From positions 1 through 64,000 of the forward strand of contig NZ_JAQTNN010000003.1 of the NCBI RefSeq assembly GCF_028713855.1: DNA of 64,000 nucleotides, in the 5' to 3' direction. Below the pieces are notes generated by a model that did not search any database, was not told the DNA's origin, and worked only from the letters and a program-made list of their open reading frames with translations. A program made the translations under genes and the position numbers. Numbering within the stretch: the first letter of the stretch is position 1; every line of letters begins with the position of its first letter. Source of the stretch: Sulfuricurvum sp. Its GTDB lineage: Bacteria > Campylobacterota > Campylobacteria > Campylobacterales > Sulfurimonadaceae. Shown here in pieces: positions 1 through 17,571 of this stretch.

Positions 1-39
1 ACTAAAATCGAAGAAAAAAGAAGAGACCGAAGTGTAGCT

Positions 40-777
40 TTACGCTACAATTTTACAGCCTGATTCGCCGTTGAAAAAGTGGAAACATGTTTGTGAAACG
101 GCTGGAAACTTCGAGTGAAATCTACAATCTATACCGTAAGCTCCTTGTACTGGAAATTTCACTGATAAATCAATTTTAGATGCTGTAACAGCATAAATAT
201 TTTTATCTATTAAGTAAGCACCATAAGCTATCAAAATTCCTAAACAAATAACTGTAACTGCATTTACCAAATTACGGTAAATTGTACGCTCATTTTCAAA
301 ATATTGATTGATTATATTTCCTGTATCTAAAGACAGTATTATTATTATTGCGATTATTGGGCTACCAATCAAATTTGATACTATATTGGCTAACAAATGA
401 TCCTCTGGATTTTTATAAACACAAAACAAAAAATCTGTAGCCATCAAGCATAAGAAAATAAGAAAAGTTAAATAAACCAACACTTTCTTGATCTTTTCAC
501 CTTTAAAGGCAAAATTTACTATTAACAGAAATGGGATTAAATACCATGGCCAGAAGTAAGCAGAAAACCATTCTATAAAATCAGCTTGATTGATTGTAAT
601 TACACCTTCATTCAAGGTGTCATATAGCTTTACTGATTCACTAGTAAAAATTTTAGTGAACATTGGTTGAATTACTTGACCTATACTCATAATGATAGAG
701 AGTAGTATTGCTAGTGGAAGAGCTTTAATAATTTTATTCATAATTAAAAAAGCATATGTTTTCATACTTATACTCAT
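40..777 (-). CDS. Multi-pass membrane protein of unknown function
   Basis: I do not recognise the family. About five hydrophobic segments are visible: residues 15-36, 75-92, 98-120, 135-152 and 168-190. This suggests an inner-membrane protein. The last 35 or so residues are odd: Cys-, Phe- and Ser-rich, hydrophilic, and unlike the rest. On the opposite strand the same DNA (about 87-180) reads as an open helical stretch beginning MFVKRLETSSEIYNLYRK, so the tail may be a translated remnant of another gene joined to a truncated membrane protein. The stop codon lies inside a small hairpin (TGTAGC/GCTACA at 33-49). No clear Shine-Dalgarno precedes the chosen start. The product is uncertain, but the hydrophobic periodicity supports a real gene. 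Confidence 0.5.
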   Translation of the reverse strand: MSISMKTYAFLIMNKIIKALPLAILLSIIMSIGQVIQPMFTKIFTSESVKLYDTLNEGVITINQADFIEWFSAYFWPWYLIPFLLIVNFAFKGEKIKKVLVYLTFLIFLCLMATDFLFCVYKNPEDHLLANIVSNLIGSPIIAIIIILSLDTGNIINQYFENERTIYRNLVNAVTVICLGILIAYGAYLIDKNIYAVTASKIDLSVKFPVQGAYGIDCRFHSKFPAVSQTCFHFFNGESGCKIVA

Positions 778-2103: not shown

Positions 2104-2466
2104 CTTTGTGTTCTTTCTATTTGTAAGGCATTTAGCCTAATGATTGCCGTTTCAAAACGGTCATATTTTGTGGTGCGGAATATTACCACACTTTTATCGT
2201 GCACTTGATAACACTATATCGTAATAGTGTCAATAATTTGTAATGGTTCAGCTTAATCTAACTATCGTATGCAAGTTTGTTTCTACCTGAGATATAGACA
2301 ATCTTTGATTGAAAATAAGTAATTTAATATAAAAAAAATACTGATAGTCAAAAATTGTATCTTAATAAAACAAAACAAATTATAGTGTTGTATACTTTTT
2401 AAAAATGAAAGACAGATAAAATTACATATGCCTGGAATGACAAAAAGAAAATACGTTGGAGAAATT
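2104..2466. other. AT-rich intergenic region upstream of the TIR operon
   Basis: About 360 bases separate the STAS-like gene from the first TIR gene. They contain a perfect 7-bp stem-loop (ACACTAT at 2211-2217, ATAGTGT at 2224-2230) and the 13-mer ACTTGATAACACT (2203-2215), which also occurs at 811-823 on the other side of the GHKL/STAS pair. A TATACT at about 2391-2396 could be a -10 element, but I see no convincing -35. No coding sequence is supported here. Confidence 0.4.
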
Positions 2467-3552
2467 ATGAGCTTTAATGAATCTCTAAAATCTCCACTAA
2501 ATATTATTAAATCAGTATTACCATATAACTACAGCAAAGAAGATGTACTTACTCTATTTAAAGAACTATACCCTTATGAATGGGGGATAATTGAACAAAG
2601 ATATAAACTTTATAAGGAAAAAGATGACTTTTTAGTAAAAGTTGGAAAAAAGAAAAGATACAAACCTATACAACCTCAATTCTATTTATATGGACTTCCA
2701 AAAGTAAAACATATGTTGTCTGAGGGACAAAGAAAGTTACATAGAGATAATTTTAATGAAGAACAACGTATAAAAAAAATAAAAATGCTTCAAGAAAAAA
2801 CAAAATCTCGTATCTCAAAGTTAAGTAAAAAATTTGATGACGCTAAAGAACTTATTCAAGAGGTAGAACCTTTATATATTGATATTTTTATTAATGCATA
2901 CCATAGAAAAGGTATAACTACTGAAGAAAAAATGGAAATAGCAAAAGAATTGCAAAAATATGAATGTGAAAAATCATTGGAATTTTTTTATAAATTGAAT
3001 GATAGTGAGCGAAATAGCCAAATTAGAATAATGGCGTTTAAACATTTACAGAGCCTTGGACGATACGTTAAACTGCGAAAAGGTTTCAAAGGTAAAAAGA
3101 AATCGTATATGTCAGAAAAAACAAGTTTTGATATGAAGCCTTTAGATTTATTGCAACGAATAGAAAATGACTCAATTCAAAATAAAAAAACATTTGATTA
3201 TTTTATATCACATAGCTTTTTAGATAATGGGTTAGTGAAAGAAATAATCAAATCTTTGAATCAATCACATCTTCATGTTTATTGTGATTGGTTTAATGAT
3301 ACTGATTTTTTGAAGAGACAATATGCAGGTGAGTACACAAAAATAGTTTTACAAAAGAGAATTCAGCAATCAAAGAAAGTATTATTCATTAGAACGAAAA
3401 ATACAAATGATCCACAAAATAATTTCTTTTCAGAATGGGTTGAAATGGAAATTTTATATGCAAAAGAACTAAACAAAGAAATAGAATGTGTTGATATGAT
3501 AAATGATGGAAATTGTGCATTTAAGATATTTGAAGATTATAAAAATCAATAA
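2467..3552 (+). CDS. TIR-domain protein 1, long N-terminal region
   Basis: The C-terminal third is a TIR-type domain starting at FDYFISHS (residue 243). It carries the WxxxE motif WVEME, placing the likely NAD-cleaving glutamate at residue 328. The N-terminal 240 residues are Lys/Glu-rich, with a probable coiled coil around 95-135, and are unfamiliar; they may sense the trigger or oligomerise. I chose the ATG at 2467 because TTGGAG lies 5 nt upstream. The in-frame ATG at 2428 has no ribosome site. It is the first gene of a tightly packed operon with a second TIR protein, a membrane protein and a ThsB-like TIR protein. Base composition is much more AT-rich than the core chromosome. A defence role is inferred. 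Confidence 0.8.
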   Translation: MSFNESLKSPLNIIKSVLPYNYSKEDVLTLFKELYPYEWGIIEQRYKLYKEKDDFLVKVGKKKRYKPIQPQFYLYGLPKVKHMLSEGQRKLHRDNFNEEQRIKKIKMLQEKTKSRISKLSKKFDDAKELIQEVEPLYIDIFINAYHRKGITTEEKMEIAKELQKYECEKSLEFFYKLNDSERNSQIRIMAFKHLQSLGRYVKLRKGFKGKKKSYMSEKTSFDMKPLDLLQRIENDSIQNKKTFDYFISHSFLDNGLVKEIIKSLNQSHLHVYCDWFNDTDFLKRQYAGEYTKIVLQKRIQQSKKVLFIRTKNTNDPQNNFFSEWVEMEILYAKELNKEIECVDMINDGNCAFKIFEDYKNQ

Positions 3553-3566
3553 GGAGAATTAAATTT

Positions 3567-4172
3567 ATGGCGTTGTTTAACTATGATGACCTAAACAGGA
3601 ATAGCTATAGCACATTCTCAGAGTCTTATGACTCTCTAAATGCAAATAGACTGTTTAAATCAGCACATTCTGTCTATGTAAGTGACTCTGATAGTTTCGA
3701 TATTTTTTTATCCCACAGTTATAATGACAGAGCGATAATACCGGCTTTAAAGCGTGAGCTTGAAAGCTTTGGATATAAGGTATATGTTGATTGGATTAAT
3801 GACAGATTACTCAGTCGAGACAACGTAACAAAAGAAACAGCTCAAATACTACAAAAAAGAATGAAACAATCAAAAAGTCTGATTTATGCTACTTCTGAAA
3901 ATTCTAGTACATCTAGATGGATGCCTTGGGAACTAGGGTATTTTGATGGGATTAAAGATAAGATGGTGGCAATTTTACCTATTAAAAAATATGGGAATGG
4001 ATTCCAAGAGAATTTTAAAGGTGAAGAGTATCTAGGCCTGTATTACTATATTGATAAAGATGAAATATCTGGTAAAAATGAACAAGCTTTATGGGTAAGA
4101 GAAAGTTTGACAAAATATATCATCTTCAGTGGATGGCTGAATAATGGTTTGAAGCCTATCGAAAGGAACTAA
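3567..4172 (+). CDS. TIR-domain protein 2
   Basis: The 201-residue protein has a TIR domain from FDIFLSHSYND (residues 44-54) through a WMPWE motif, with the candidate catalytic Glu at residue 122. A short Ser/Tyr-rich leader of about 40 residues precedes it. Between them lie VYVDWINDR, typical of the beta-B/BB-loop region, and a KQSKSLIYATS strand. AAGGAG lies 9 nt before the ATG, and the gene starts 14 nt after TIR protein 1. TIR enzymes of this kind cleave NAD+ or make cyclic or otherwise modified ADP-ribose signals; which product applies here is unknown. Confidence 0.85.
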   Translation: MALFNYDDLNRNSYSTFSESYDSLNANRLFKSAHSVYVSDSDSFDIFLSHSYNDRAIIPALKRELESFGYKVYVDWINDRLLSRDNVTKETAQILQKRMKQSKSLIYATSENSSTSRWMPWELGYFDGIKDKMVAILPIKKYGNGFQENFKGEEYLGLYYYIDKDEISGKNEQALWVRESLTKYIIFSGWLNNGLKPIERN

Positions 4173-4175
4173 CAG

Positions 4176-4655
4176 ATGGCTAGTATAGACAAAGAAAAAA
4201 TCTTAATTGAAGAGATAAAACTAGTTCAAGATATTATTAAAAGAATGGCTAGTAATTCTTTTAACGTTAAAACTTGGGCTGTAACCTTAGTGGCTGCAAC
4301 GCTTTTAATAAAAGGCAATAGCAATCATACATTTATAGCATTTATCCCTTTATTTGCATTTTGGTTTCTTGACGCATATTATTTACAACAAGAAAGATTG
4401 TATAGAGAATTACATAAATGGATTATCAAGTATAGAATGGATCATGATGATGATTTATTTAATATGAGTACTACGAAATTTAAAAATAATGTACAGTCAG
4501 TTGTAAGAATAATGTTTTCAATTAGCATATTTCCTTTTTATTTTGGCATTTTGATTTTATTAATTGCTTATATTTTTATAGCCAATACAGATCATATTAA
4601 ATCATTTTTCGAGTGTATTCAATTTTGCTTGAATGGAGTTACTAATGGCAAGTAG
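4176..4655 (+). CDS. Small multi-pass membrane protein in TIR operon
   Basis: This 159-residue protein has two hydrophobic segments near residues 33-65 and a longer one near 112-138, suggesting three or four membrane passes. A charged cytosolic loop rich in Tyr, Arg and Glu (QQERLYRELHKW) lies between them. I do not recognise a named family. It sits between two TIR genes, starts 3 nt after TIR protein 2 with AAAGGA upstream, and overlaps the next gene by 11 nt, so all four are probably translated together. By analogy with Thoeris and CBASS operons, where the signal-activated effector is often a membrane protein, it is the best effector candidate here. That role is inference. Confidence 0.7.
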   Translation: MASIDKEKILIEEIKLVQDIIKRMASNSFNVKTWAVTLVAATLLIKGNSNHTFIAFIPLFAFWFLDAYYLQQERLYRELHKWIIKYRMDHDDDLFNMSTTKFKNNVQSVVRIMFSISIFPFYFGILILLIAYIFIANTDHIKSFFECIQFCLNGVTNGK

Positions 4656-5223
4656 GGTTTTCTTTAGTTTTCATTACCAAGATGTTATAGATTTTAGAGC
4701 CAATGTAGTTCGAAATCATGGGCAATTTAAATTAAATGCAGGAGAAGCCGGATATTTTGATTCTTCTATGTGGGAGAAGGCTAAAAAAGAAAGTAATTTG
4801 GCTTTAAAAAAACTAATCAATAATGGCTTGTCATACACATCTAACACTTGTGTATTAATTGGTTCAGAAACCTATAGCCGACGATGGGTTAGATATGAAC
4901 TATTAAAAAGCTTGAAAAAAGGTAAACATATTTTTGGGGTTCATATTAATGGAATTAAGTGTAAAAACAGTGCGACAAAAGATTTAGGTAAAAATCCATT
5001 AGATTATATTGGGGTATATGCTACGGATAATAATTCATATGATTTAATTGAAAAAAAGGATGATGGGAAATGGTATTACTATACAGAAATAGACAGTAGT
5101 TCAAAAGTTACTACAAAACATACGTTGCCATTAAAAGAAAATATACCTTTGTCAAATTTTTTCTCCGTTTACAAGTGGAATGCAGATGATGGATATAATA
5201 ATTTTAAAAATTGGGTTAAATAA
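4645..5223 (+). CDS. ThsB-like TIR protein (MTH538/DUF1863 type)
   Basis: The protein opens with RVFFSFHYQDV and continues with AGYFDSSMWEKAKK, a VLIGSETYSRRWVRYE core and a KSLKKGKHIFGVHINGIK strand. This is the signature of MTH538-type (DUF1863) TIR domains, the family of the Thoeris signal-producing enzyme ThsB. The WVRYE motif puts the candidate catalytic glutamate at residue 85, the same number I recall for the catalytic Glu of Bacillus cereus ThsB. I chose the internal ATG at 4645 because GGAG lies 6 nt upstream and family members begin at this point. It is the last gene of the operon, overlapping the membrane protein by 11 nt. Confidence 0.85.
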   Translation: MASRVFFSFHYQDVIDFRANVVRNHGQFKLNAGEAGYFDSSMWEKAKKESNLALKKLINNGLSYTSNTCVLIGSETYSRRWVRYELLKSLKKGKHIFGVHINGIKCKNSATKDLGKNPLDYIGVYATDNNSYDLIEKKDDGKWYYYTEIDSSSKVTTKHTLPLKENIPLSNFFSVYKWNADDGYNNFKNWVK

Positions 5224-6482: not shown

Positions 6483-6857
6483 ATGAAAAGAGATTTAGAC
6501 CTTCTTAGAGATATCATGATATATTTAGAGGAAAATTTAGCTCCGGGTGGAAATATCCAATCAAATGATATTTCACTTTATGACGGTAGTGATGAAGAGT
6601 ATAAAAAACTTTCAGAGCACATAAAATTGCTAATTGAAGATGGCTTAATAGAGACATCAAAACCGGTGGTGATGAAAGGATTTGCTATCTTTATGATTTT
6701 TAGAATAACTTCCAAAGGACATGATTTTTTAGATGCACTTAGAAATGATACTGTTTGGAATAACACGAAAGAAAAAATGAAAGAAATTGGTGGCTTCACA
6801 CTTGGTATAGCTCTAGATATAGCCAAAGGGTACATGGCAAAGCTGATCAATCAATAA
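6483..6857 (+). CDS. DUF2513 domain protein
   Basis: The 124-residue sequence begins MKRDLDLLRDIMIYLEEN. It contains HIKLLIEDGLIETSK and then ITSKGHDFLDALRNDTVWNNTKEKMKEIGGF, the hallmark of DUF2513, a winged-helix-like family common on plasmids, phages and genomic islands. The fold suggests a DNA-binding regulator, but no function is established. AAGGA lies 7 nt before the ATG. It is followed 12 nt later by an unknown gene. The pair lies between two copies of the relaxase 3' end and looks like a cargo cassette. Confidence 0.75.
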   Translation: MKRDLDLLRDIMIYLEENLAPGGNIQSNDISLYDGSDEEYKKLSEHIKLLIEDGLIETSKPVVMKGFAIFMIFRITSKGHDFLDALRNDTVWNNTKEKMKEIGGFTLGIALDIAKGYMAKLINQ

Positions 6858-6869
6858 GATGAGTTTAAA

Positions 6870-7370
6870 ATGCTTAAGATAGAAGAATTAAAATTTTTAG
6901 TTAACTTTGCAACAGATGATATTGCCGATGTTATGTTTGAACAAGAGCAAGAACAAGAACGAGAAGAATATATATCAAGAAGAAAAAATGGCGAACTGAC
7001 CGCAGAAGAGATACAAGCGGAAAGTCTGTGGAGTGAGGATGAAAAAGCCTATTATGAAGAAAATGAAAATCTATCCGATGAAGACCGCGTTTTAGATTAT
7101 CTAAAAGATGAGGATTTATCAATAGAACTATTAAATGGTTCAACTGCTATTATAGAGAATAAAAACAAGCAGTTAAATATACAGTTCTCTGTGAACAACA
7201 AGAAGTACAAAGTAACTTTTGTAGAGTTTATGGATCGTGACATTTTTTTTGAAGTAGTTAACCTATTCAAACAACCTAAACAAGTCACATTAAGTAATGT
7301 GTCACCACAAATCGGTGGAATTATTGATATAAATTTTGGTATTAAATTTAATATTCAGCTAATGAACTAA
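6870..7370 (+). CDS. Unknown acidic protein paired with DUF2513
   Basis: I do not recognise this 166-residue protein. Residues 22-75 are very acidic and Gln-rich (a run of EQEQEQEREE), probably helical or disordered. The C-terminal half (about 95-166) has alternating hydrophobic residues typical of a small beta-rich domain. No signal peptide or membrane segment is seen. It follows the DUF2513 gene by 12 nt in the same direction, so the two may act together. The ribosome site is weak. Confidence 0.5.
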   Translation: MLKIEELKFLVNFATDDIADVMFEQEQEQEREEYISRRKNGELTAEEIQAESLWSEDEKAYYEENENLSDEDRVLDYLKDEDLSIELLNGSTAIIENKNKQLNIQFSVNNKKYKVTFVEFMDRDIFFEVVNLFKQPKQVTLSNVSPQIGGIIDINFGIKFNIQLMN

Positions 7371-7518: not shown

Positions 7519-9084
7519 CTACAATCCCATCCCCTTTTTCTCCGACCGATTCTGCCCAATCTCTCTATTCTTGTCATTTACTACGTGTAGCTTCAATCCC
7601 ATTGCTTTGTTCAACTCACCCACCCGCTCTTTAAACTCATCGCTCCCTTGGATCACAAGTGCGCTCATCGTCCCGAATTTGATCTTGGCCAAGTCCATAA
7701 ACTCCCGGAGAGCTTTTTCACTTTTATCGTAAACGAATTTCAACGATCGCCCGGCATCGATGATCTTGCCGCCGTCGATTTTGTAGAAGATGTCACCGTT
7801 TTTCGATACGTGCGGTTTTTGTCCCGGTAGTGTTCGTAAATATTGGTTCTCACGTTCTCCATCCTTGAGGATCAATGCATTAACGCTCGGATCATTGGTT
7901 GATTTTCTGCGTAAAATATTGAGTGCTTCTAAATCACGGTTTGCGGCTCTATCGGTCAAGTAATCGGTATAGGTCTTAAACTCGTTATCTTTGTATATCT
8001 TCGATCGCTCACCGGTGAATTGATCCTTGAGGGATTTAAACTCTTTGGCGCGTTCTTCACCTAGTATCCGGTACGCTTCACGCTTCACCCGGTTGTTTAA
8101 CGTCGGATTGTTTTTAAGCTCCTCTCGCCGCCGGCCATAATCGTCTTTTAGCTCTTTAAATGCTTTTTCACTTTTACTCGAGAGCGTTTCAAGTAGCTCT
8201 TTTTTGGTGGTGCGTTTCTCTTTGGTTTCTTTTTGGTATTCATCCCATAAAGAGGACTTTTTCGCACCGAATTTGGTCACTGCCGGTTCATCGATCCGGG
8301 AGGGTTTGAACTCACCGAAACGCTTCGTTAAATTGCCTTTAGACAATCCACGGTCAACGTCAGAGGCTTTGACGAATAATGACCGGTCTTTGTCTGAAAT
8401 GACGATCCCGGCTCCGCGCTCTCGTAGCTCAAGGTTGTATTTGTTTAAAGTCTTTTGCAAGTCCTCAAGGGATTTGGTTTCATCTTTTAAAATCTCCTTG
8501 ATCTCGCCGGCAACGTCCTCTTTGATCCATGATAAAAAGCTCGTTACGCCGGAATGAATCTCTTTGTCTTTGATGTGTACCGGTTCCCGGTCTTTTGGTA
8601 AGTGATTGGTTCGTTTGAGGTTGTATTTTTCCTCAAGCTCGATCGCTTTGTTTTGGAGAGTGTACATATCCCGGAACGGGTCTTTGATCGTAAATGTTTC
8701 GGGATCGATCCGGTTGATGGCAATGTGCATATGTAGATTGTTCGTATTGTCATGGATCACGCTAAGACGTTGGTGATTTTGCATCCCTAGCGATTTTACA
8801 AACTCTTCCTCTATAGCTCTCATCATCTCAAGGGATGGATTTTCATCCTCGACGAATGAAACGATCATGTGAAAGGTTTTATCACCTTTTGATAACGTAT
8901 TAAGAGCTTGAGTCACTTCGATCTCTCTAATGCTCAAGGGTATATCATCAGCAAAATTACAATTCGTAAATTGATGATCCCGGGCTTTTTCTCCCTCGTT
9001 CTTAACGTCCATAATATAGTCGGCCAAACCGCCGAAACTCCCCCCGCCCTCTTTCCGTATTTTTGCTACTTTTTTAACGATCAT
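7519..9084 (-). CDS. MOBP-type relaxase (TraI/MobA family)
   Basis: This 521-residue DNA-nicking enzyme would start conjugative transfer by cutting at oriT and covalently holding the strand through a tyrosine. The N-terminal relaxase domain shows a candidate Tyr in FGGLADYIM (residue 23) and the metal-binding LHMHIAINRI motif near residue 115. The middle is a long charged helical region. The C-terminal 110 residues (FYKIDGGKIIDAGRSLKFVYD onward) resemble the LPD7-type domain found after many MOBP relaxases. AAGGAG lies 6 nt before the ATG, and the gene begins 3 nt after the MobC-like gene ends. No coupling protein is encoded nearby, so transfer probably needs a helper. Confidence 0.85.
   Translation of the reverse strand: MIVKKVAKIRKEGGGSFGGLADYIMDVKNEGEKARDHQFTNCNFADDIPLSIREIEVTQALNTLSKGDKTFHMIVSFVEDENPSLEMMRAIEEEFVKSLGMQNHQRLSVIHDNTNNLHMHIAINRIDPETFTIKDPFRDMYTLQNKAIELEEKYNLKRTNHLPKDREPVHIKDKEIHSGVTSFLSWIKEDVAGEIKEILKDETKSLEDLQKTLNKYNLELRERGAGIVISDKDRSLFVKASDVDRGLSKGNLTKRFGEFKPSRIDEPAVTKFGAKKSSLWDEYQKETKEKRTTKKELLETLSSKSEKAFKELKDDYGRRREELKNNPTLNNRVKREAYRILGEERAKEFKSLKDQFTGERSKIYKDNEFKTYTDYLTDRAANRDLEALNILRRKSTNDPSVNALILKDGERENQYLRTLPGQKPHVSKNGDIFYKIDGGKIIDAGRSLKFVYDKSEKALREFMDLAKIKFGTMSALVIQGSDEFKERVGELNKAMGLKLHVVNDKNREIGQNRSEKKGMGL
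7520..7543. repeat. 24-bp direct repeat, relaxase-end copy
   Basis: This is the intact-gene copy of a 24-bp repeat whose partner is at 6252-6275 (one mismatch). It encodes the end of the relaxase. The two copies bracket about 1.25 kb holding the DUF2513 gene and its neighbour. Confidence 0.7.
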
Positions 9085-9087
9085 GAC

Positions 9088-9453
9088 TCACTCCTTTGAA
9101 ACGAGTTTTTTAGCGCATAGAGTTAAGAAGTCTTGTGATTCTTTGATCTGCGCCAATAGATTAATAACTTCCCTCTCATCCAATCCCGGTTTTCTGCTCT
9201 CGTTATTCAACCACATTTTGAGCAACCCACCGATCCGGCCAAGGTCTGCCCGGCTATCAGATAATTCTTTAAAAGCCCACTTATCCACTTTGGAGTTAAC
9301 CGGATAATTCAACGATAGACTGCGGAGAAATTCGGACGGTAGAATCCCGTACATTTTTGCCCTTTCGGTGATCTCCGCCAACTCCGATTCGTTGACCCGG
9401 ACACTAATTTTTTTACCTCTAAATTCTTCTTTCGATAGTTTTGCTCTTCCCAT
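9088..9453 (-). CDS. MobC/TraJ-like relaxosome accessory protein
   Basis: This small basic protein contains KKISVRVNESELAEITERAKMYGI, a ribbon-helix-helix-like DNA-binding segment typical of MobC/TraJ/NikA relaxosome proteins, followed by FLRSLSL and a helical tail ending LLAQIKESQDFLTLCAKKL. Such proteins bind oriT and help the relaxase reach its nick site. I chose the ATG at 9453 (121 residues) because AAAGG lies 6 nt upstream and the family starts near here; the open frame extends to 9543. It precedes the relaxase gene by 3 nt. The repeat-rich DNA just upstream is the natural place for its binding site. Confidence 0.75.
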   Translation of the reverse strand: MGRAKLSKEEFRGKKISVRVNESELAEITERAKMYGILPSEFLRSLSLNYPVNSKVDKWAFKELSDSRADLGRIGGLLKMWLNNESRKPGLDEREVINLLAQIKESQDFLTLCAKKLVSKE

Positions 9454-9617
9454 TTTTGACCTTTCCCTTTCCAACGTCGAACGCGAAGCGTGAGTAAGTT
9501 CAAGATGATAATGTGTACTTTTTGCTTGCAAAATGTGCGGCATTATCCTATCTTGTCCTGAGATTCAACCGTATTTTGTAACATTTTACGCAACTGATCT
9601 CCCCCTTTTTCATGCAA

Positions 9618-9830
9618 TTGCGTATAAGTGCGCATAAATGCGGAAAATTGCGCAAATTTGCGTAAAAATGCCTAAAATTGCGTATTTTTGCGGGTTATTT
9701 CGGTTTTGTTTATCCCATGTTATAATCCGGATTTTTCCGGATTTTTCCGTACTGTTTAACCCCAAATAGAGAAATCCGCAAAAGTACGTTTTAATCCGGA
9801 TTAATACGAAAATATACGCATTAATCCGGT
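9618..9830. repeat. 10-bp phased repeat tract (candidate oriT/origin)
   Basis: From 9619 to about 9705 the sequence repeats every 10 bases as TGCGNAAAAT-like units: CG starts at 9621, 9631, 9641, 9651, 9661, 9681, 9691 and 9701, with the 9671 unit degenerate. A second group, CCGGATTTTT, has CG at 9728, 9738 and 9748. A third has CG at 9777, 9787, 9797, 9807, 9817 and 9827, alternating AATCCGGATT and AATACGAAAA-like units. A-tracts repeated every helical turn should bend DNA strongly. The position, just upstream of mobC and the relaxase, suggests oriT, a replication origin or a nucleoprotein organising site. It has no spacers and is not CRISPR. Confidence 0.8.
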
Positions 9831-9854
9831 TTTATAAATACCTTTTTTTGTCAA

Positions 9855-10081
9855 GTATAGTAAATGACAAGAGTGATAAAATAGTTCCATCTAAATACCA
9901 TTTTGAGGTCTGAACATGGAACACCAAAAAGAGATTGACGAACCGAGCCACATGGGCGGAGGTGACCCCCTCCTATTGAGAATCGTTATGACGATTTTGA
10001 TGCCCGTTTTTTGGATTCTTGATAAACTAAAACATGGCTACAAAAGTTAATAGTTAGACTAATTCTTGTCATTTACTATAC
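9855..10081. repeat. 18-bp perfect inverted repeat pair
   Basis: GTATAGTAAATGACAAGA at 9855-9872 recurs exactly inverted at 10064-10081, bracketing a 44-codon reading frame. The core TAGTAAATGACAAGA is also present inside the relaxase gene near its 3' end (minus strand, about 7570-7584). Recombination sites, protein-binding sites or a long hairpin are all possible. Confidence 0.7.
9916..10050 (+). CDS. Small membrane protein (44 aa)
   Basis: This short frame starts MEHQKEIDEPSHMGGGDP. It then has one hydrophobic segment (LLLRIVMTILMPVFWIL, about residues 19-35) and a basic tail, DKLKHGYKS, fitting a single-pass inner-membrane peptide. GAGGT lies 7 nt before the ATG. It reads opposite to the transfer genes and sits inside an 18-bp inverted repeat. 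No homologue comes to mind. Its last codons lie in a 23-bp sequence that is repeated downstream at 10156-10178. Confidence 0.45.
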   Translation: MEHQKEIDEPSHMGGGDPLLLRIVMTILMPVFWILDKLKHGYKS

Positions 10082-10178
10082 CTTTCTTTTTTAGCCATAT
10101 TCTCTTATTTCGGGAATCTTATTTGCCCCTATTTTTAGCTTTTTATAAATTCGATCATGGCTACAAAGTTTAATAGTT
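10033..10178. repeat. 23-bp imperfect direct repeat
   Basis: CATGGCTACAAA...TTAATAGTT occurs at 10033-10055 and again at 10156-10178, with 21 of 23 bases identical. The first copy contains the last codons of the 44-residue frame; the second lies just beyond the end of the gene at 10193. The interval holds one arm of the inverted repeat and a T-rich stretch. Confidence 0.6.
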
Positions 10179-10192
10179 CATCGATTGAATCA

Positions 10193-10912
10193 TTAAGCCG
10201 CCGATTCATTTGATTCGTAATAGGCATTAATACGTTCGACAATTCTCAATCCAACGATTTTGCCGCCCTCTTCGACCGGCTCGATACAAAGTCGGTGATC
10301 CGTTTTTGCATTGATCTCTTCAATACCGGGCGCATACGTTAATACGGCGTCCGTGTACTCATCCGTCTCATCGATCGGGATCATCATTGAGAAACTATCC
10401 GGTTGTTCTATGATCGCGTCGAATATCTCCAATGCACCTAAATCACTCAACCCCGCTTTGATCCAATCGTGACAGATCAATACCTTGTAATGTTCAACGA
10501 TCAACCGGTGAAACACATGGTTCAATACGATCGTAAACGTCTCAAAACTCTGCGGAGCACTCACCGAAGCAAACGGTGAGAATCTTGTCATTTTATCCGC
10601 TTCTCTTAGCTCCATCTCGAAATTAAGCTGTCCCACAATGTCGAATAACTGACTAATAGGAGTACCTTTTCGAGGATCATTGTTAAACTCGAATTTTTGT
10701 TGATACCGGGCGGCGTACTCATCCCCCTCGGATACCATCTCAAAATCGATCACCCGCTTGAGTGTTTCAGCATCAATTGTAAATTCTGTTTGTTCAGGAT
10801 CAACCAAGAGCCGTTCCCGAAAATAGACCACAAGAGCATAAAACGCCAACCGCTCCCACTCTCCCATAGTTCTGTCAAAGATTTCATAATTTGGATTAAA
10901 TAAGAGTGTCAT
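10193..10912 (-). CDS. Unknown protein encoded after trbL-like gene
   Basis: I do not recognise this acidic, soluble 239-residue protein. It has no signal peptide or membrane segment and contains only ordinary helical and strand-like stretches, such as WERLAFYALVVYFRERLLVD near the N-terminus and MIPIDETDEYTDAVLTYAPG later. It starts 3 nt after the TrbL-like gene stops, so it belongs to the transfer operon and is its last gene before the repeat-rich region. A transfer- or replication-linked role is inferred only from position. Confidence 0.5.
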   Translation of the reverse strand: MTLLFNPNYEIFDRTMGEWERLAFYALVVYFRERLLVDPEQTEFTIDAETLKRVIDFEMVSEGDEYAARYQQKFEFNNDPRKGTPISQLFDIVGQLNFEMELREADKMTRFSPFASVSAPQSFETFTIVLNHVFHRLIVEHYKVLICHDWIKAGLSDLGALEIFDAIIEQPDSFSMMIPIDETDEYTDAVLTYAPGIEEINAKTDHRLCIEPVEEGGKIVGLRIVERINAYYESNESAA

Positions 10913-10915
10913 TAC

Positions 10916-12139
10916 TTACCCTTTATTGTAAGCTGCTTGTTGGGCATCTTCTTCGTTGCGAGTCGCATTAACAGCGTTTTGGGCTTGAGTTTTCTCGCTT
11001 TTGTCCGCGAGGTCTTTTCTGAATTTATCTCTTGTGGTTCCGATCGAATCAGTTGAGTTTTTGAACGCCATACGTCCACCCATTGTTCCGCCGTGATTTT
11101 CTCCGGACATAGAGCGTTTAAAATCATCTTTGAAAGCTGATTTGAGATTCTTCATCGTTGAAGCCGAGGAATCACCCCCGGCTCTTTGCTCTTTAGCAAG
11201 ATTAGAGGCGGCTTTGACCGCCGCGCCCATTCCGGCCGCACCTTTTGCGGCTCCCATTGCACCGGCGGCCATACCACCGGCAACAGCCGCCGCCGTTCCA
11301 AGCCCGGCGGTCGAGGTTTGAGCGACAGTACCGGAAAAAAGGGCTTCGACGATCCCCGACGACATATGAACAACGGAAGCCATTACGATCGACATGATAA
11401 TCATCACAAAAATTGAGCCGTTGTCATTATCGACGTGCGCCGCGAAATCGTGCATCATCGTAATGGATAGGCCAAGAAAAAGCTTTAATAGTAAAATCTC
11501 CGCACCGACCTTAATGTTTGCAAAAATGGGGTTATACGCCATTTGTCGCGTTTGGGTTAACCCCGCCAATGAAAATACAAGCGGAGCAAGTGCCAACATT
11601 ACATAAGATTTTATATACGCCATAATCAGATGAGCCGCCATCAAACCAAATGCAATTAAAATAATTATCGCGCTGAAAAAAAGTGTGATCGAATCTATCA
11701 AATGATAAACCGAAAGCCCCTCCATTAAGGAAAGAACGATTTTTAGCGCATTCGCAATAATATTATCGGGGTCAACTGTTTCACCCGATGCTTGATCCCC
11801 AAGTTTCGCAAATGAATCCGGGATTGTCGCAAGCCAATCCGAGTATTGAAAGAGCATCATAAAAAATCCGATAATGAGCGTCTTTTGAATCAGCGGAGGG
11901 ATAAAATCGCTAAAATCGACTTTTCCGCTCATGGCGATTTTTCCGAATTCAATGACCAAATCTATCGTTATAAGCGCACCAAATACCCACATAGCCGCAG
12001 GAACGATTACCGAACGCCAATGTGTACTTGCCGCTTCAAAGGACGCTAAAAGCGTGTCTCCGTGACTTGCCGCCGGGTCAATCGCTCCATACAGAAAACC
12101 CGGGAGCAATAGTCCAAAAAAAATAATGAGCCGCTTCAT
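10916..12139 (-). CDS. trbL: TrbL/VirB6-like conjugal transfer membrane protein
   Basis: This 407-residue polytopic inner-membrane protein forms part of the type IV secretion channel. After a signal-like N-terminus (residues 1-18), five or more hydrophobic segments follow, including WVFGALITIDLVIEFGKIA, LIIGFFMMLFQYSDWL, IIILIAFGLMAAHLIMAYI and LGLSITMM. A Gly/Ala-rich stretch (GLGTAAAVAGGMAAGAMGAA, around 275-310) and a charged tail complete the architecture typical of TrbL. It lies below trbJ, a small membrane gene and a TrbK-like lipoprotein gene, matching the trbJ-K-L order of P-type systems. The other mating-pair genes are missing. Confidence 0.85.
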   Translation of the reverse strand: MKRLIIFFGLLLPGFLYGAIDPAASHGDTLLASFEAASTHWRSVIVPAAMWVFGALITIDLVIEFGKIAMSGKVDFSDFIPPLIQKTLIIGFFMMLFQYSDWLATIPDSFAKLGDQASGETVDPDNIIANALKIVLSLMEGLSVYHLIDSITLFFSAIIILIAFGLMAAHLIMAYIKSYVMLALAPLVFSLAGLTQTRQMAYNPIFANIKVGAEILLLKLFLGLSITMMHDFAAHVDNDNGSIFVMIIMSIVMASVVHMSSGIVEALFSGTVAQTSTAGLGTAAAVAGGMAAGAMGAAKGAAGMGAAVKAASNLAKEQRAGGDSSASTMKNLKSAFKDDFKRSMSGENHGGTMGGRMAFKNSTDSIGTTRDKFRKDLADKSEKTQAQNAVNATRNEEDAQQAAYNKG

Positions 12140-12504: not shown

Positions 12505-13296
12505 TTACCGCCAGTTTTCATACCGGCGAGTATTGCCCGCCCGATTAGTATTAGGTATCGTGTATTGTTGGCGACGTTCAGATAACGCACGTTGCGCCGT
12601 TTCTTTGTCATTTGTCGCCGCCATGTATGACGCTTGTGTTGATGCTTGCGTCATTAACGTGTACTGCAATTTTTTCAATGTGTCGGTTTGATGAAGTGCG
12701 ATTTCATTGGCCGCCTGAATTGCTTTTAGCTGTCCGTCAGCAGATCGTGATTGACTTTGCAACATATTCATCGTTGCCTCATCCGAAGTGAGGGCGTTCA
12801 TCTGAGTGTTGAGGGCTTTGAGCGTACCGTTAGTGCTGTCGCGCGTGCTTTGATTTATGTTTCTGTATTGTTGCGTGAACGAAGATGTCCGAGCATCGAG
12901 CGATTGCGCGGCCGATGCTTCATAACTTGTGTACCCTTTGTATTTTTCAGCAAATTGTGAATCGAGGTTTGCCGCCGCGAAACTCACGGCTTGGCCTTGC
13001 TGAACAATGTTTTTTAAGCTCATCACATCATTTGCGAATTTTTGCCATACGGTCGCCGGGAGCATTTGAAGATTTTGAACCATCATTTGCGTTTGCTGTA
13101 TGTGATTCGTCAAACTTTCCAATTGAGTTTGGTATTGCTGAACTTGTTTTGCATACTGATTTACAAGCTGTATGTTGTTCAAAATTTGCGTAGGCTCGGA
13201 TGCTCCGGCGATACCGCCCCCACCCGCAAGAACAACTTGAGGCGTTGACGCGAGAAGCAACGCGGCCAAGACTAAGGTTTTAGTGTTTGTTTTCAT
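12505..13296 (-). CDS. trbJ: TrbJ/VirB5-like conjugal transfer protein
   Basis: The protein has a cleavable signal (KTLVLAALLLASTPQVVLAG, residues 6-25). A long Gln- and Asn-rich coiled-coil body follows, with features of TrbJ: ILNNIQLVNQYAKQVQQYQTQLESLTN and AQSLDARTSSFTQQY. TrbJ is the VirB5-like periplasmic protein that assists pilus assembly and mating-pair contact. I chose the ATG at 13296 (AAGGA 7 nt upstream) over one five codons earlier. It overlaps the previous small gene by 17 nt and is followed by small membrane and lipoprotein genes, then trbL. Confidence 0.8.
   Translation of the reverse strand: MKTNTKTLVLAALLLASTPQVVLAGGGGIAGASEPTQILNNIQLVNQYAKQVQQYQTQLESLTNHIQQTQMMVQNLQMLPATVWQKFANDVMSLKNIVQQGQAVSFAAANLDSQFAEKYKGYTSYEASAAQSLDARTSSFTQQYRNINQSTRDSTNGTLKALNTQMNALTSDEATMNMLQSQSRSADGQLKAIQAANEIALHQTDTLKKLQYTLMTQASTQASYMAATNDKETAQRALSERRQQYTIPNTNRAGNTRRYENWR
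12506..12522. repeat. 17-bp direct repeat ending trbJ and lipoprotein gene
   Basis: TACCGCCAGTTTTCATA here, at the end of the trbJ-like gene, recurs exactly at 12146-12162, at the end of the lipoprotein gene 360 bp away. Both copies encode RYENWR plus the stop context. Confidence 0.7.
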
Positions 13297-13531
13297 CTTT
13301 TGTTCCTTCAAACAAGATTTTGTACTCAGTCGAAAAATTCTGACTAAGTTGAAATGACATTTTTTTTAGACCATTCTTTCGCATGTGGTCATAAATTGCA
13401 TTTTCATATTTCTGCCTCATTGCTTCTAGCACTTTGACATCTTCGCCTTGACCCAAGCTCTCAAGATGTTTGATCGGAGTTTTCAAATATGATTCAATCC
13501 GACTACACATTTCAAGCGTTTTTTTGTTCAT
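13280..13531 (-). CDS. Small helical protein before trbJ
   Basis: This is an 83-residue soluble protein with predicted helices throughout and no recognisable motif (it begins MNKKTLEMCSRIESYLKTP). It overlaps the preceding HTH gene by 20 nt and the trbJ-like gene by 17 nt, so it belongs to the same transcript. It is real on grounds of packing rather than homology. No function can be assigned. Confidence 0.5.
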   Translation of the reverse strand: MNKKTLEMCSRIESYLKTPIKHLESLGQGEDVKVLEAMRQKYENAIYDHMRKNGLKKMSFQLSQNFSTEYKILFEGTKDENKH

Positions 13532-14315
13532 TCATTTCCTCCTCAAGATAATCGAAAATATTTGCAAAGCCATGACTTTGCAAACCTGCTTGAATTTGCT
13601 CACCCCGTTCTCTAGTCAGTTTTGATCGACGATTACGGATATTTGTAATCGTTCTAGTTCCACCAGAGAGAATTTCTTTAACAAGTGCCTCGCGGTACTT
13701 GTTAAAATCACCCCCTCGCTCCCTAGCGATCGAATTGATTCCATCGATAACGATTTGACGGGACAACTCCTCAATGTTTTCGGGAAGTCCCGAATAGGGA
13801 TTAGGAGTTGTGACGATCTCACAACCAACCAACTCATCTTCTTTCAAAATTGGAGGAGATGAAGAGGATGAAGTATTTATTCTCTTTGAGTATTTTTTAG
13901 ACTGAGTATTATTAAGTGCGCTGTTTTTACCGCTACGGTTTTTTACCGATGCGGGTTTTTGCCGTTGCGGTGATTTTTTCACCTTGCACTCTTCAAAACT
14001 CCCTATTTTCTGATATTTTGTTGGATAGATAGAAAAGATTTTTGCACCAAACTCTCCTTTTTCTCCTCGATTTTGCCCACCGTCATCAATCCAACCTGTC
14101 GTGCTCAATTCCGCAATAACTTTGCGTAGTGTCGGTATAGAAATTAACAGTGCATCCGCAATATCTTTCATCTTAAATTTCCAATCATCGGGCTTGACTG
14201 CTAGGTAGCAAAACAACGCTCTTGCTGTAGCCGATAATTCTCTATCTTCGATCAGCGCATTAGGAATTTGCGCAAACTCGCTTTTTAAGTGATTTCTTAA
14301 ATGATTTTGAGACAT
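13512..14315 (-). CDS. HTH replication- or regulation-type protein
   Basis: The N-terminal 90 residues read FAQIPNALIEDRELSATARALFCYLAVKPDDWKF and then MKDIADALLISIPTLRKVIAELSTTGWI. This is a winged-helix layout seen in phage/plasmid replisome-organiser and initiator-like proteins. A Ser/Lys/Gln-rich linker (about 105-160) and a helical C-terminal part follow. It heads the transfer operon and follows two AlpA-like small genes. The element may have its own replication step, but an initiator role is only inferred. Confidence 0.6.
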   Translation of the reverse strand: MSQNHLRNHLKSEFAQIPNALIEDRELSATARALFCYLAVKPDDWKFKMKDIADALLISIPTLRKVIAELSTTGWIDDGGQNRGEKGEFGAKIFSIYPTKYQKIGSFEECKVKKSPQRQKPASVKNRSGKNSALNNTQSKKYSKRINTSSSSSPPILKEDELVGCEIVTTPNPYSGLPENIEELSRQIVIDGINSIARERGGDFNKYREALVKEILSGGTRTITNIRNRRSKLTRERGEQIQAGLQSHGFANIFDYLEEEMNEQKNA

Positions 14316-14336: not shown

Positions 14337-14627
14337 TCATGCTGTTTTCATGCATCGTTGGACATATTCATCAAGTTCCGATTTTTTTAGTACAGTAACC
14401 TTTGGTGAAAGCTTGTAAGAGACTAGTACCCCCTTCTTTAATAATTGATACAGCCCACTCTCGCTCATTGACAAATACCGCGAAGCAGCTCGCGGACGCA
14501 ATAGAGAATCAGAATACAGTTCTTTTGACTCCGGCGACTTTTGAATAATTTGAGCACTGTTGTCTACATTCTCAAAATCGATTCCTTTTGATTGAAGCGA
14601 TTTTGAAAGATAAGTACTATTTTTCAT
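14337..14627 (-). CDS. AlpA/excisionase-like HTH protein
   Basis: The C-terminal half reads LLRPRAASRYLSMSESGLYQLLKKG and then VLKKSELDEYVQR, the helix-turn-helix layout of AlpA/HTH_17 excisionase-type proteins that bind attachment sites or regulate integrases. I chose the ATG at 14627 (96 residues) because GGGG lies 7 nt upstream and it overlaps the previous gene's end by 11 nt. It lies in the integrase-proximal control region, so it may serve as a recombination directionality factor. Confidence 0.6.
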   Translation of the reverse strand: MKNSTYLSKSLQSKGIDFENVDNSAQIIQKSPESKELYSDSLLRPRAASRYLSMSESGLYQLLKKGVLVSYKLSPKVTVLKKSELDEYVQRCMKTA

Positions 14628-14850
14628 GTGTATCCCCCAAAGTGTTGTTTTTAGCAGAACGGATATTCGAGTTGATATAGGCCTCAATCCATTCTTTTTT
14701 ATAAACACAATGCCGACCAACTCTTGTATAAGTAATTTTCCGGAGCATCCTCAAATTTCTAAGAGTTGTCTTCGATATTTTTGGCAATTGGTCTATACCT
14801 TTTTCGACTTCATCTGACGTATAGTATTTTTCTTCCATGCATACATCCAT
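14617..14850 (-). CDS. Second small HTH (AlpA-like) protein
   Basis: The 77-residue protein contains YYTSDEVEKGIDQLPKISKTTLRNLRMLRKI and then RVGRHCVYKKEWIEAYI, the layout of a MerR/AlpA-type small DNA-binding domain. Translation may begin at the first ATG or at the fourth codon after it (14838); neither has a strong ribosome site. It faces the divergent gene at 14988 across an operator-rich promoter region and overlaps the next AlpA-like gene by 11 nt. Confidence 0.55.
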   Translation of the reverse strand: MDVCMEEKYYTSDEVEKGIDQLPKISKTTLRNLRMLRKITYTRVGRHCVYKKEWIEAYINSNIRSAKNNTLGDTHEK

Positions 14851-15758: not shown

Positions 15759-16997
15759 TCACTTTTCCGTTGACGTTTTCACTTTATCCAAAAAATCCGC
15801 CCACCAATTCATTAATTTAACCCGACTTTGCCAATACTCGGCTCGATTGTACGCCGCTCGAACTTTATTTTTGGGTTCATGAGCAGTACATTTTTCAATA
15901 ACATCACTATTAAAACCATGTACTTCAATATTCTCTTCCGCTAAAGTAGTAAACATCGCTCTGAACCCATGAGGAACAATCTCTTCTTTAGAATACCCCA
16001 AACGAAACAATGCCATTCGTAATGTATTCTCACTTAATTTACTATTACCTGTACGTGATGTACTAAAGCAAAATTGCCCTTTACCAGTTAGTTTTTTTAA
16101 TTCTCTGAGAATATCAATCACTTGAGGAACCAGAGGAACCAAATGTTCCCGATTCATTTTCATCTTTTTGGCGGGGATCGTTAAGATAGCTTTATCTAAA
16201 TCTACTTCGCTCCATTCCATTTTTGCAATATTACCTGGTCGTAAAGCAAGATAAGGCATTATCTGCAAAGCACAACGAACCGTGTATGTACCATTATAAA
16301 TATCGATAGCTCGAAGTAAGTTGCCAATCTCTTTTGGATCAGTAATCGTAGGATAGGGTTGTTTTACAGCCGGTTTTAAAGTCCATTTCGGACTTATATC
16401 GACGGCGATGTTTCTTTCACATCGATGATTCGCTACCGCATACTGATAGACCTGAGAAACGATATTGTAAACCCTATGCGCTTCCTCAATCGCTCCTCGA
16501 TCTTGAATGCGGGTAAGATAAACTAAAATATCATCACGCTTGATTTCGCTCATTCGCATATCCCCGATGAAAGGAATGATATTTAACTTTAAACGTCCCC
16601 ACTGTTTGTTAAAGTGACCTTCGCTGATTTTTCCTCGAATCAATTCAAAGTAATCAGCCGCACATTTCTCAAATGTGTTTTGGCTATCTTGTTCCTCTGC
16701 TTGTTTAATCATCTTTAGCTCTTTTTTCTCCCGGATCGGATCGGTGCCTTTGGAAACTTTTGATTTGAGTTCATCACGTTTCGCTCTTGCATCCTTGAGA
16801 GAAACGGCCGGGTATATTCCGGCGGTCGTTTGTTTCGCTTTACCGTCAATTGTATAGCGTATCTCCCAAAACTTTCTTCCATCCGGTGTAATCGTAAGCT
16901 GTAAACCGTTACCGTCCGAAATACTATACTTCTTCTCTTTTGGCTTCACGTTTCTAATTTCTGTATCGGTGAGTGGGCTTACTTTTCGATTGGCCAT
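15759..16997 (-). CDS. int: P4-type tyrosine integrase
   Basis: This 412-residue integrase has an N-terminal DUF4102-type arm-binding domain (LTDTEIRNVKPKEKKYSISDGNGLQLTITPDG), a SAM-like core-binding domain and a C-terminal catalytic domain. ALRPGNIAKMEW carries the first Arg, HGFRAMFTTLAEE the His/Arg pair, and KVRAAYNRAEYW the probable nucleophile Tyr. Such enzymes insert islands at tRNA or tmRNA 3' ends. Here the gene starts 200 bp from the 3' end of ssrA and points away from it, the standard arrangement for an element integrated there. Confidence 0.9.
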   Translation of the reverse strand: MANRKVSPLTDTEIRNVKPKEKKYSISDGNGLQLTITPDGRKFWEIRYTIDGKAKQTTAGIYPAVSLKDARAKRDELKSKVSKGTDPIREKKELKMIKQAEEQDSQNTFEKCAADYFELIRGKISEGHFNKQWGRLKLNIIPFIGDMRMSEIKRDDILVYLTRIQDRGAIEEAHRVYNIVSQVYQYAVANHRCERNIAVDISPKWTLKPAVKQPYPTITDPKEIGNLLRAIDIYNGTYTVRCALQIMPYLALRPGNIAKMEWSEVDLDKAILTIPAKKMKMNREHLVPLVPQVIDILRELKKLTGKGQFCFSTSRTGNSKLSENTLRMALFRLGYSKEEIVPHGFRAMFTTLAEENIEVHGFNSDVIEKCTAHEPKNKVRAAYNRAEYWQSRVKLMNWWADFLDKVKTSTEK

Positions 16998-17198
16998 CGT
17001 AGCTTTCTCTTTTATGTAGTTATTTTATACTCTTCTAAACAACATTGTGAGCTAACTACATTTAAAACCACATTAATTTTGTGGATATACTGAAATTACA
17101 TAAAAGGAACTAAAAGGAATAATACGAAACAAATCCCTATTCTATGGGGTTTTATTGGAGGGATAGAGGGTATATGAAAGGATATAAAAGTAAAGAGA

Positions 17199-17571
17199 TG
17201 GTGGAGGCGTCCGGGATTGAACCGGAGTCCTAAACCAAGGAAGTAAAGGCGTCTACATGCTTAGTAACGTTGTTTGTTTTTCAGATGACTATCACACAAC
17301 GTGCAAAGCTACATCATCCAATTCTCTAAATTCATTCAAGTCCGAGACATTCCAAGAATATAGCTATCACAGGGGTTATACGCCAAGCCCTTCCAGTTAT
17401 AGCATAGGAAGGTAGCGCAGTCCTAAAGTTTAATTAAACTTACGCTACAGCGTAAGCAGGACGGTAATTAGTGTTGTTTGCGTTTAAGCAAGTGTGAGCC
17501 GTATAACGGAGCTGCTCAGTCCGGCGATGCAACCTAAACCTTCTTGATCCAGTCGAAGCCATGTCGCCCCC
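17199..17571 (-). ncRNA. ssrA: tmRNA (ssrA)
   Basis: The 5' end GGGGGCGACATGG and the 3' end with the T-arm GGTTCAATCCCGG and CCTCCACCA are clear on the minus strand. The tag reading frame (17440-17481) starts at GCA and encodes ANNTNYRPAYAVA then TAA, in the style of Campylobacterota tags. The RNA rescues stalled ribosomes with SmpB. Its 3' end is the probable attachment site of the neighbouring island, and the terminal CCA is encoded. Confidence 0.95.

What the first reader, a model, noticed from the sequence alone, without database searches (positions are those of the whole stretch)
9618..9830. CpG-anchored sequence repeating every 10 bp, upstream of mobC and the relaxase
CG dinucleotides recur at exactly 10-bp steps in three groups (9621-9701, 9728-9748, 9777-9827), with A/T-tracts between. 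One step per helical turn puts all motifs on one DNA face and predicts strong bending. This is unlike ordinary iterons (about 17-22 bp). It could be an unusual oriT, origin or partition-type site.
Basis: partly seen in the sequence, partly recalled or inferred. Interest (0 to 1): 0.65.

Follow-up and report, generated by a model that had tools for sequence, protein, structure and literature searches.

The report
10-bp repeat array between rep and oriT
A mobile DNA element carries a row of short motifs, one per turn of the double helix, between its replication-protein gene and its transfer origin; a related element in another bacterial family has the same motifs in the same place, so this is a real and probably functional protein-docking site, most likely part of the element's replication or transfer origin.

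Summary
All 17 CG dinucleotides in 9618-9830 fall in three exact 10-bp phases (0 of 2000 shuffles), with one empty slot at 9671. The segment is the most curved place in the 64 kb by two wedge models. It is not the transfer origin itself: oriT (nic-like motif 9547-9558) lies next to it. The carrier is a ~20-kb integrative mobilizable element in ssrA. New evidence: an element in another family of the same order has the same gene order (trbJ-trbL-rep-array-oriT-mobC-relaxase). Its array has the same unit (TTGCGTAAAA every 10 bp), and its nearest unit lies exactly 35 bp from the nic motif, as here. A plasmid with the same oriT type keeps a degenerate copy and extreme curvature there. More distant relaxase relatives, in which no rep was found, show no array. 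Most likely it is a phased iteron-like cluster bound by the element's divergent Rep_3-type initiator (post-excision origin), abutting oriT. The 10-bp unit, without any 20-bp superperiod, departs from known 17-22-bp iterons, so I do not file it as a classical iteron origin. Rivals: extended oriT/relaxosome site, excisionase-type operator, centromere. No binding protein is shown.

The parts
9618..9707 (+). Array group 1: nine 10-bp slots, consensus TTGCGTAAAA (slot 9671 has CC instead of CG)
9726..9751 (.). Array group 2: three units TCCGGATTTT / TCCGTAC, in phase at 9728-9748
9775..9834 (.). Array group 3: six units, TCCG and TACG types, in phase at 9777-9827
9564..9593 (-). oriT-proximal units in inverted orientation; first unit TTGCGTAAAAT identical in L204 and exactly 35 bp from the nic-like motif in both; units 2-3 not recognisable here, intact in L204
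9547..9558 (-). nic-like motif GGACAAGATAGG of the oriT (inferred from MOBP/RP4-type nic), conserved in L204 and L007
9470..9562 (-). oriT: nic-like motif, inverted repeats, conserved TTACTCACGCTTYGCGTTCGAC
9613..9732 (.). Predicted most strongly curved 120 bp of the window
9088..9453 (-). mobC: NikA/TraJ-like ribbon-helix-helix mobilization protein (start at 9453 preferred; ORF open to 9543)
7519..9084 (-). TraI/MobA(P)-family relaxase
10193..10912 (-). Divergent Rep_3-type replication initiator; favoured binder of the array
   Evidence: Rep3_C 7e-4; homologue Rep3_N 0.008; aligned to L007 Rep2, which hits Rep3_C at 8.7e-13
9916..10050 (+). 44-aa ORF, homologous to the C-terminus of a 114-aa protein encoded after parA-RHH in plasmid L007
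10916..12139 (-). TrbL
12505..13311 (-). TrbJ
13512..14315 (-). Phage-type replication initiation (O-like) protein (PHROG 4221/270)
14337..14720 (-). HTH_17 / excisionase-family small DNA-binding protein (rival binder)
15759..16997 (-). Tyrosine integrase
17199..17571 (-). ssrA (tmRNA), attachment site of the element
   Evidence: far att GACGCCTCCACCA found in contig C24

Best explanation
The array is a cis-acting initiator-binding cluster: the plasmid-like replication origin (and copy-control site) of an integrative mobilizable element, placed between its Rep_3-type initiator gene and its oriT. After excision from ssrA, or after arrival in a recipient, several Rep molecules would bind side by side on one face of this pre-curved DNA, one contact per helical turn. 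They would wrap it and melt nearby A/T-rich DNA (for example 9830-9870), and the O-like replication protein encoded at 13512-14315 would help load the helicase. Shown: the array, its 10-bp phase, predicted curvature, flanking genes, and conservation of array, unit and position in a second element. Inferred: that Rep is the binder, and that the site fires replication.
For: Synteny and unit conserved in G343/L204, another family of the same order: the array begins within about 15 bp of the stop codon of a 47%-identical Rep, and a PWM from the window's group 1 alone scores it 39.8, against a maximum of 13.8 in 40 shuffles. Rep looks like a Rep_3 protein by weak hits to both domains and full-length alignment to a clear Rep_3 protein. 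Rep is present in all three elements with an intact or degenerate array; it was not found beside the other relaxase relatives (some only in short loci), none of which shows a 10-bp array in the stretches held. Both elements carry a phage-type replication or helicase-loading protein. [quoted passage not shown]
Against: The unit is 10 bp with no 20- or 30-bp superperiod, whereas plasmid iterons are typically 17-22 bp (PMC4980987). Plasmid L007 keeps an intact Rep (53% identical) but only a degenerate array. The co-occurrence with Rep is confounded with oriT type and relatedness. No epsilonproteobacterial DnaA core TTCAC lies anywhere in 9540-10193 (PMC5043019). The exact 35-bp spacing to the nic motif points to oriT instead. 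The Rep structure model was too poor to use (pLDDT 43).
Confidence: 0.42

Rival explanations
1. Extended oriT: the array is curved DNA and a repeat platform for a relaxosome accessory protein (the RHH protein MobC, or a host bending factor). It wraps next to nic and helps expose or regulate the nick site, the role that TraK and the bent region beside oriT play in RP4 (RP4 from general knowledge).
For: Always next to the same oriT type; the first TTGCGTAAAAT unit is exactly 35 bp from the nic-like motif in both elements. Plasmid L007, with rep elsewhere, has its most curved DNA at the same oriT-proximal place with a degenerate phased array (2 of 500 region shuffles). MobC is an RHH protein; the RHH protein ParR binds 10-bp repeats (PMC5016525).
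Against: L007 and relatives with MobC 46-52% identical lack an intact array, so MobC-type proteins do not need it. The array reaches about 270 bp from nic. No TraK-like gene was seen in either array-bearing element.
Confidence: 0.25
2. Operator of an excisionase-type (HTH_17/AlpA/RdfS-like) protein that polymerises head to tail, one protomer per helical turn, coupling excision with expression of rep and mob genes.
For: Recombination directionality factors bind direct repeats one helix turn apart and bend DNA (PMC7498355); RdfS appears to act on conjugation as well as excision (PMC11963761). Both array elements encode HTH_17 proteins; none was recognised in L007, whose array is degenerate.
Against: The array is 7.4 kb from att; the short 10-bp repeats at att (AAAAGGA type, 17101-17190) have a different sequence; L009 has an HTH_17 relative but no array at its oriT; 17-18 units is far more than usual.
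Confidence: 0.14
3. Partition site (centromere) whose motor protein is supplied in trans, for example by a helper plasmid.
For: Short phased repeats mark partition sites: 9-bp arrays sit around parA-RHH in same-genus plasmid L007 and relatives, and a heterogeneous 10-bp CG array flanks tubR-tubZ in phage contig L023.
Against: No ParA, ParM or TubZ motif in the parts of either element held; a piece of the window's element may be missing at the contig break.
Confidence: 0.1
4. DnaA-box-like cluster: about half of group 1 units read TTWTNCGCA, one base from the E. coli DnaA box.
For: Five units match TTWTNCACA with one mismatch; L204 has a perfect TTTTACACA at the array edge.
Against: The epsilonproteobacterial DnaA box has core TTCAC (PMC5043019), absent from 9540-10193 and from the L204 array.
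Confidence: 0.04

Closest known systems
SGI1 repA-oriV replicon (Rep_3-family IME replicon)
   Same: IME with a Rep_3-type gene followed downstream by a noncoding repeat cluster
   Different: SGI1 has four 16-bp iterons and several DnaA boxes; here 10-bp units, more of them, no TTCAC core, and the cluster abuts oriT
Iteron origins of F, P1, R6K, pPS10, RK2
   Same: Direct repeats near a winged-helix initiator gene, with spacing that keeps the same DNA face
   Different: Iterons there are 17-22 bp; here one helical turn with no 20-bp superperiod
RP4-type oriT with TraK-bound bent region
   Same: MOBP relaxase, TraJ/NikA-like accessory protein, curved DNA beside nic
   Different: No TraK-like gene; the curved region carries a strict 10-bp sequence repeat
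Cox/Xis/Apl/RdfS-type operators
   Same: Direct repeats one DNA turn apart, bending
   Different: Many more units, far from att, and other repeats at att
parC/ParR, parH/ParG and tubC/TubR centromeres
   Same: Arrays of short units wrapped by RHH or winged-helix proteins
   Different: No partition NTPase found in the element

Membership tests
Rep_3 iteron-type oriV | Rep_3 initiator encoded next to the repeats | tested here: inconclusive
   Rep3_C 7e-4 and Rep3_N 0.008, both below curated cut-offs, but full-length alignment to L007 Rep2 with Rep3_C 8.7e-13
Rep_3 iteron-type oriV | Direct repeats of about 17-22 bp | tested here: not met
   Unit 10 bp, no 20/30-bp superperiod by permutation
Rep_3 iteron-type oriV | Repeats conserved next to homologous rep genes | tested here: inconclusive
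   Met in window and L204; degenerate and not next to rep in L007
Rep_3 iteron-type oriV | DnaA boxes of the host type in the origin | tested here: not met
   No TTCAC in 9540-10193; core from PMC5043019
Rep_3 iteron-type oriV | Rep binding and autonomous replication | not testable with these tools
   Needs EMSA and replication assay
oriT / relaxosome accessory region | Adjacent to a nic motif and relaxase genes | tested here: met
   nic-like motif at 9547-9558, 35-bp spacing conserved
oriT / relaxosome accessory region | Intrinsic curvature beside nic | tested here: met
   Prediction only; wedge parameters written from memory
oriT / relaxosome accessory region | Array conserved with this oriT type | tested here: inconclusive
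   Intact in 2, degenerate in L007
RP4 TraK region | traK-like gene next to oriT | tested here: not met
   The L007 candidate (6706-7092, itself without a family match) has no match in the window or L204
Partition centromere (type Ib/II/III) | NTPase and centromere-binding protein genes nearby | tested here: not met
   L007 RHH absent from own genome
Excisionase-type operator | Direct repeats one helical turn apart | tested here: met
Excisionase-type operator | Same motif at att | tested here: not met
   Array pattern occurs only at the array in the own genome; att repeats differ
DnaA-box cluster | Epsilonproteobacterial core TTCAC | tested here: not met

The most novel reading that the evidence does not exclude
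A bifunctional rep-oriT junction: one protein coats inverted 10-bp arrays (far array one way, oriT-proximal array the other, conserved spacing to nic) on strongly curved DNA, and by doing so switches the element between replication and transfer. It would be a one-turn-per-unit initiator platform unlike the two-turn iterons known.
Probability: 0.15. Interest if true: 0.7.

Novelty: new variant of a known kind. Interest (0 to 1): 0.45.

Why it matters
Many IMEs encode Rep-like proteins whose origins have not been located. A sharply defined array, conserved across two families of one order and sitting between rep and oriT, gives a small testable segment for how such elements replicate or prime transfer. 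If Rep binds 10-bp units, it would be an unusual mode for the Rep_3 class.

Tried and rejected
DNA similarity of the array in plasmids: none. Relaxase scan of genome contigs: no relatives confirmed. Pattern scans of viral and genome contigs: mostly homogeneous 10-bp microsatellites or chance matches; useful exception L023 (TubZ phage). Family-wide pattern scan: only the window plus one chance hit in a coding gene (G073). 20- or 30-bp superperiod: rejected by permutation. DnaA cluster: rejected for lack of TTCAC. Coding repeat: the only ORFs over the array are short and unsupported. Rfam: nothing. Promoter/terminator scan: no excess. Rep in viral contigs and plasmids: none. Profile of Rep against PDB sequences: none. 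Single-sequence fold of Rep: too poor to use, not searched further. oriT motif in viral contigs and plasmids: none.

Full report
Observation. The region reads as described. All 17 CGs in 9618-9830 lie in three exact 10-bp registers; 13 pairs at distance 10 against 1.25 expected, 0 of 2000 dinucleotide shuffles, and no other 213-bp stretch of the window comes close. Tandem Repeats Finder reports the same arrays. One slot (9671) is GCC. Across the 17 units T precedes the CG by two bases in 17/17 and A follows in 13/17.

Curvature. With two wedge models (parameters written from memory) 9613-9732 has the smallest end-to-end/contour ratio of the whole 64 kb, 0.51 and 0.58 against means of 0.94. This is a prediction, not a measurement.

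Neighbourhood. On the minus strand the order is integrase 15759-16997, HTH_17 proteins, O-like replication protein 13512-14315, TrbJ, TrbL, a Rep-like protein 10193-10912, the array, oriT, mobC (NikA/TraJ-like) and a TraI/MobA(P) relaxase. The integrase abuts ssrA (17199-17571). The duplicated ssrA end GACGCCTCCACCA occurs in contig C24 after 2.5 kb of cargo, so I take this as an integrative mobilizable element of roughly 20 kb with a contig break inside. The Rep-like protein hits Rep3_C at 7e-4, its homologue hits Rep3_N at 0.008, and both align full length with L007 Rep2, a clear Rep_3 protein. I call it a divergent Rep_3-type initiator.

Relatives. In 228 genomes of the family the array pattern occurs only here, apart from one chance hit inside a coding gene. 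A class-wide search with Rep found G343 in another family of the same order. Its chromosome holds an element with the same order: integrase, HTH_17, a DnaD-like helicase loader, trbJ, trbL, rep (47% identical), array, oriT, mobC, relaxase (61% identical). Its array (L204, about 11596-11718) is seven units in one orientation and three in the other, consensus TTGCGTAAAA as in group 1. A matrix from the window's group 1 alone finds it with 39.8, against at most 13.8 in 40 shuffles of the 20-kb locus. The window has the oriT-proximal inverted unit too (9584-9593), and in both elements that unit starts exactly 35 bp before GGACAAGATAGG.

A third relative, G065 contig 14 (L007), is a circular plasmid of 11,575 bp by its 127-bp terminal overlap, with relaxase 75% and Rep about 53% identical. 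Its rep lies elsewhere, followed by a second Rep_3 gene. Beside its oriT is a degenerate phased array (7171-7220; 2 of 500 region shuffles; 2 of 60 whole-plasmid shuffles) and the most curved DNA of the plasmid. The more distant relaxase relatives (34-43% identical) show no 10-bp array in the stretches held; two of these that I inspected (L008, L009) have a different nic motif and a possible traK-like gene there. Some of these loci are short and do not reach all of the upstream region. Array presence therefore tracks both Rep and this oriT type, and the two are confounded in my sample.

Mechanism. I favour a Rep-bound origin, because the array follows rep directly in L204, both intact-array elements carry replication proteins, and SGI1 gives a precedent of an IME with oriV just downstream of a Rep_3-family gene (PMC7826253). 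Against it, plasmid iterons are typically 17-22 bp (PMC4980987) and here the unit is 10 bp without superperiod; L007 keeps Rep while its array decays; and the conserved 35-bp spacing argues for a role in oriT. The second reading is therefore an extended oriT. Third is an excisionase-type operator: such proteins bind direct repeats one turn apart and bend DNA (PMC7498355), and RdfS appears to promote conjugation as well as excision (PMC11963761). Fourth is a centromere, as with the 9-bp arrays around parA-RHH in L007 and the 10-bp CG array around tubR-tubZ in L023; no NTPase motif was found in either element.

Verdict. A real, conserved, non-chance cis-acting site; function inferred, binder unknown. 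I file it as a new variant of a known kind (phased protein-binding array at a mobile element's rep-oriT junction) and not as a member of the iteron, TraK, centromere or RDF classes, each of which fails at least one tested feature.

Noticed in passing
window 9855-9872 and 10064-10081: Perfect 18-bp inverted repeat (GTATAGTAAATGACAAGA) flanking a 44-aa ORF, 227 bp in all; could be a small insertion or a pair of operators.
   Followed up: no
window 9916-10050; L007 5975-6319; L204 17015-17551: The 44-aa ORF matches only the C-terminus of a 114-aa protein encoded after parA-RHH in L007, while L204 carries two copies matching only its N-terminal half: a split two-module protein.
   Followed up: partly
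L007 4599-4649, 5625-5664, 5935-5964; L159; L160: A parA-RHH module shared by three same-genus genomes, with 9-bp ACTTAATTA-type repeats in several places: a probable type Ib partition system.
   Followed up: partly
L023 166-276 and about 1728-1771: IMG/VR phage contig with heterogeneous 10-bp CG-phased arrays on both sides of a tubR-like/tubZ operon: a candidate tubC.
   Followed up: partly
window 1-126: Contig start shared exactly with the end of C7 and the start of C12 of the same genome, and similar 52-bp stretches at four other contig ends: a dispersed repeat that breaks the assembly inside the element.
   Followed up: partly
window 2428-5223 and L183 634-2226: Cargo of the element includes TIR-like and caspase-like genes (by sequence look only), probably anti-phage defence.
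   Followed up: no
L007 3712-3835: Long nested inverted repeats (27 nt and 23 nt) in a 1-kb noncoding region of the plasmid, perhaps its own origin or an RNA.
   Followed up: no
L183 6340-7197: Another parA plus small basic protein pair about 3.9 kb beyond the far attachment site, outside the element.
   Followed up: partly
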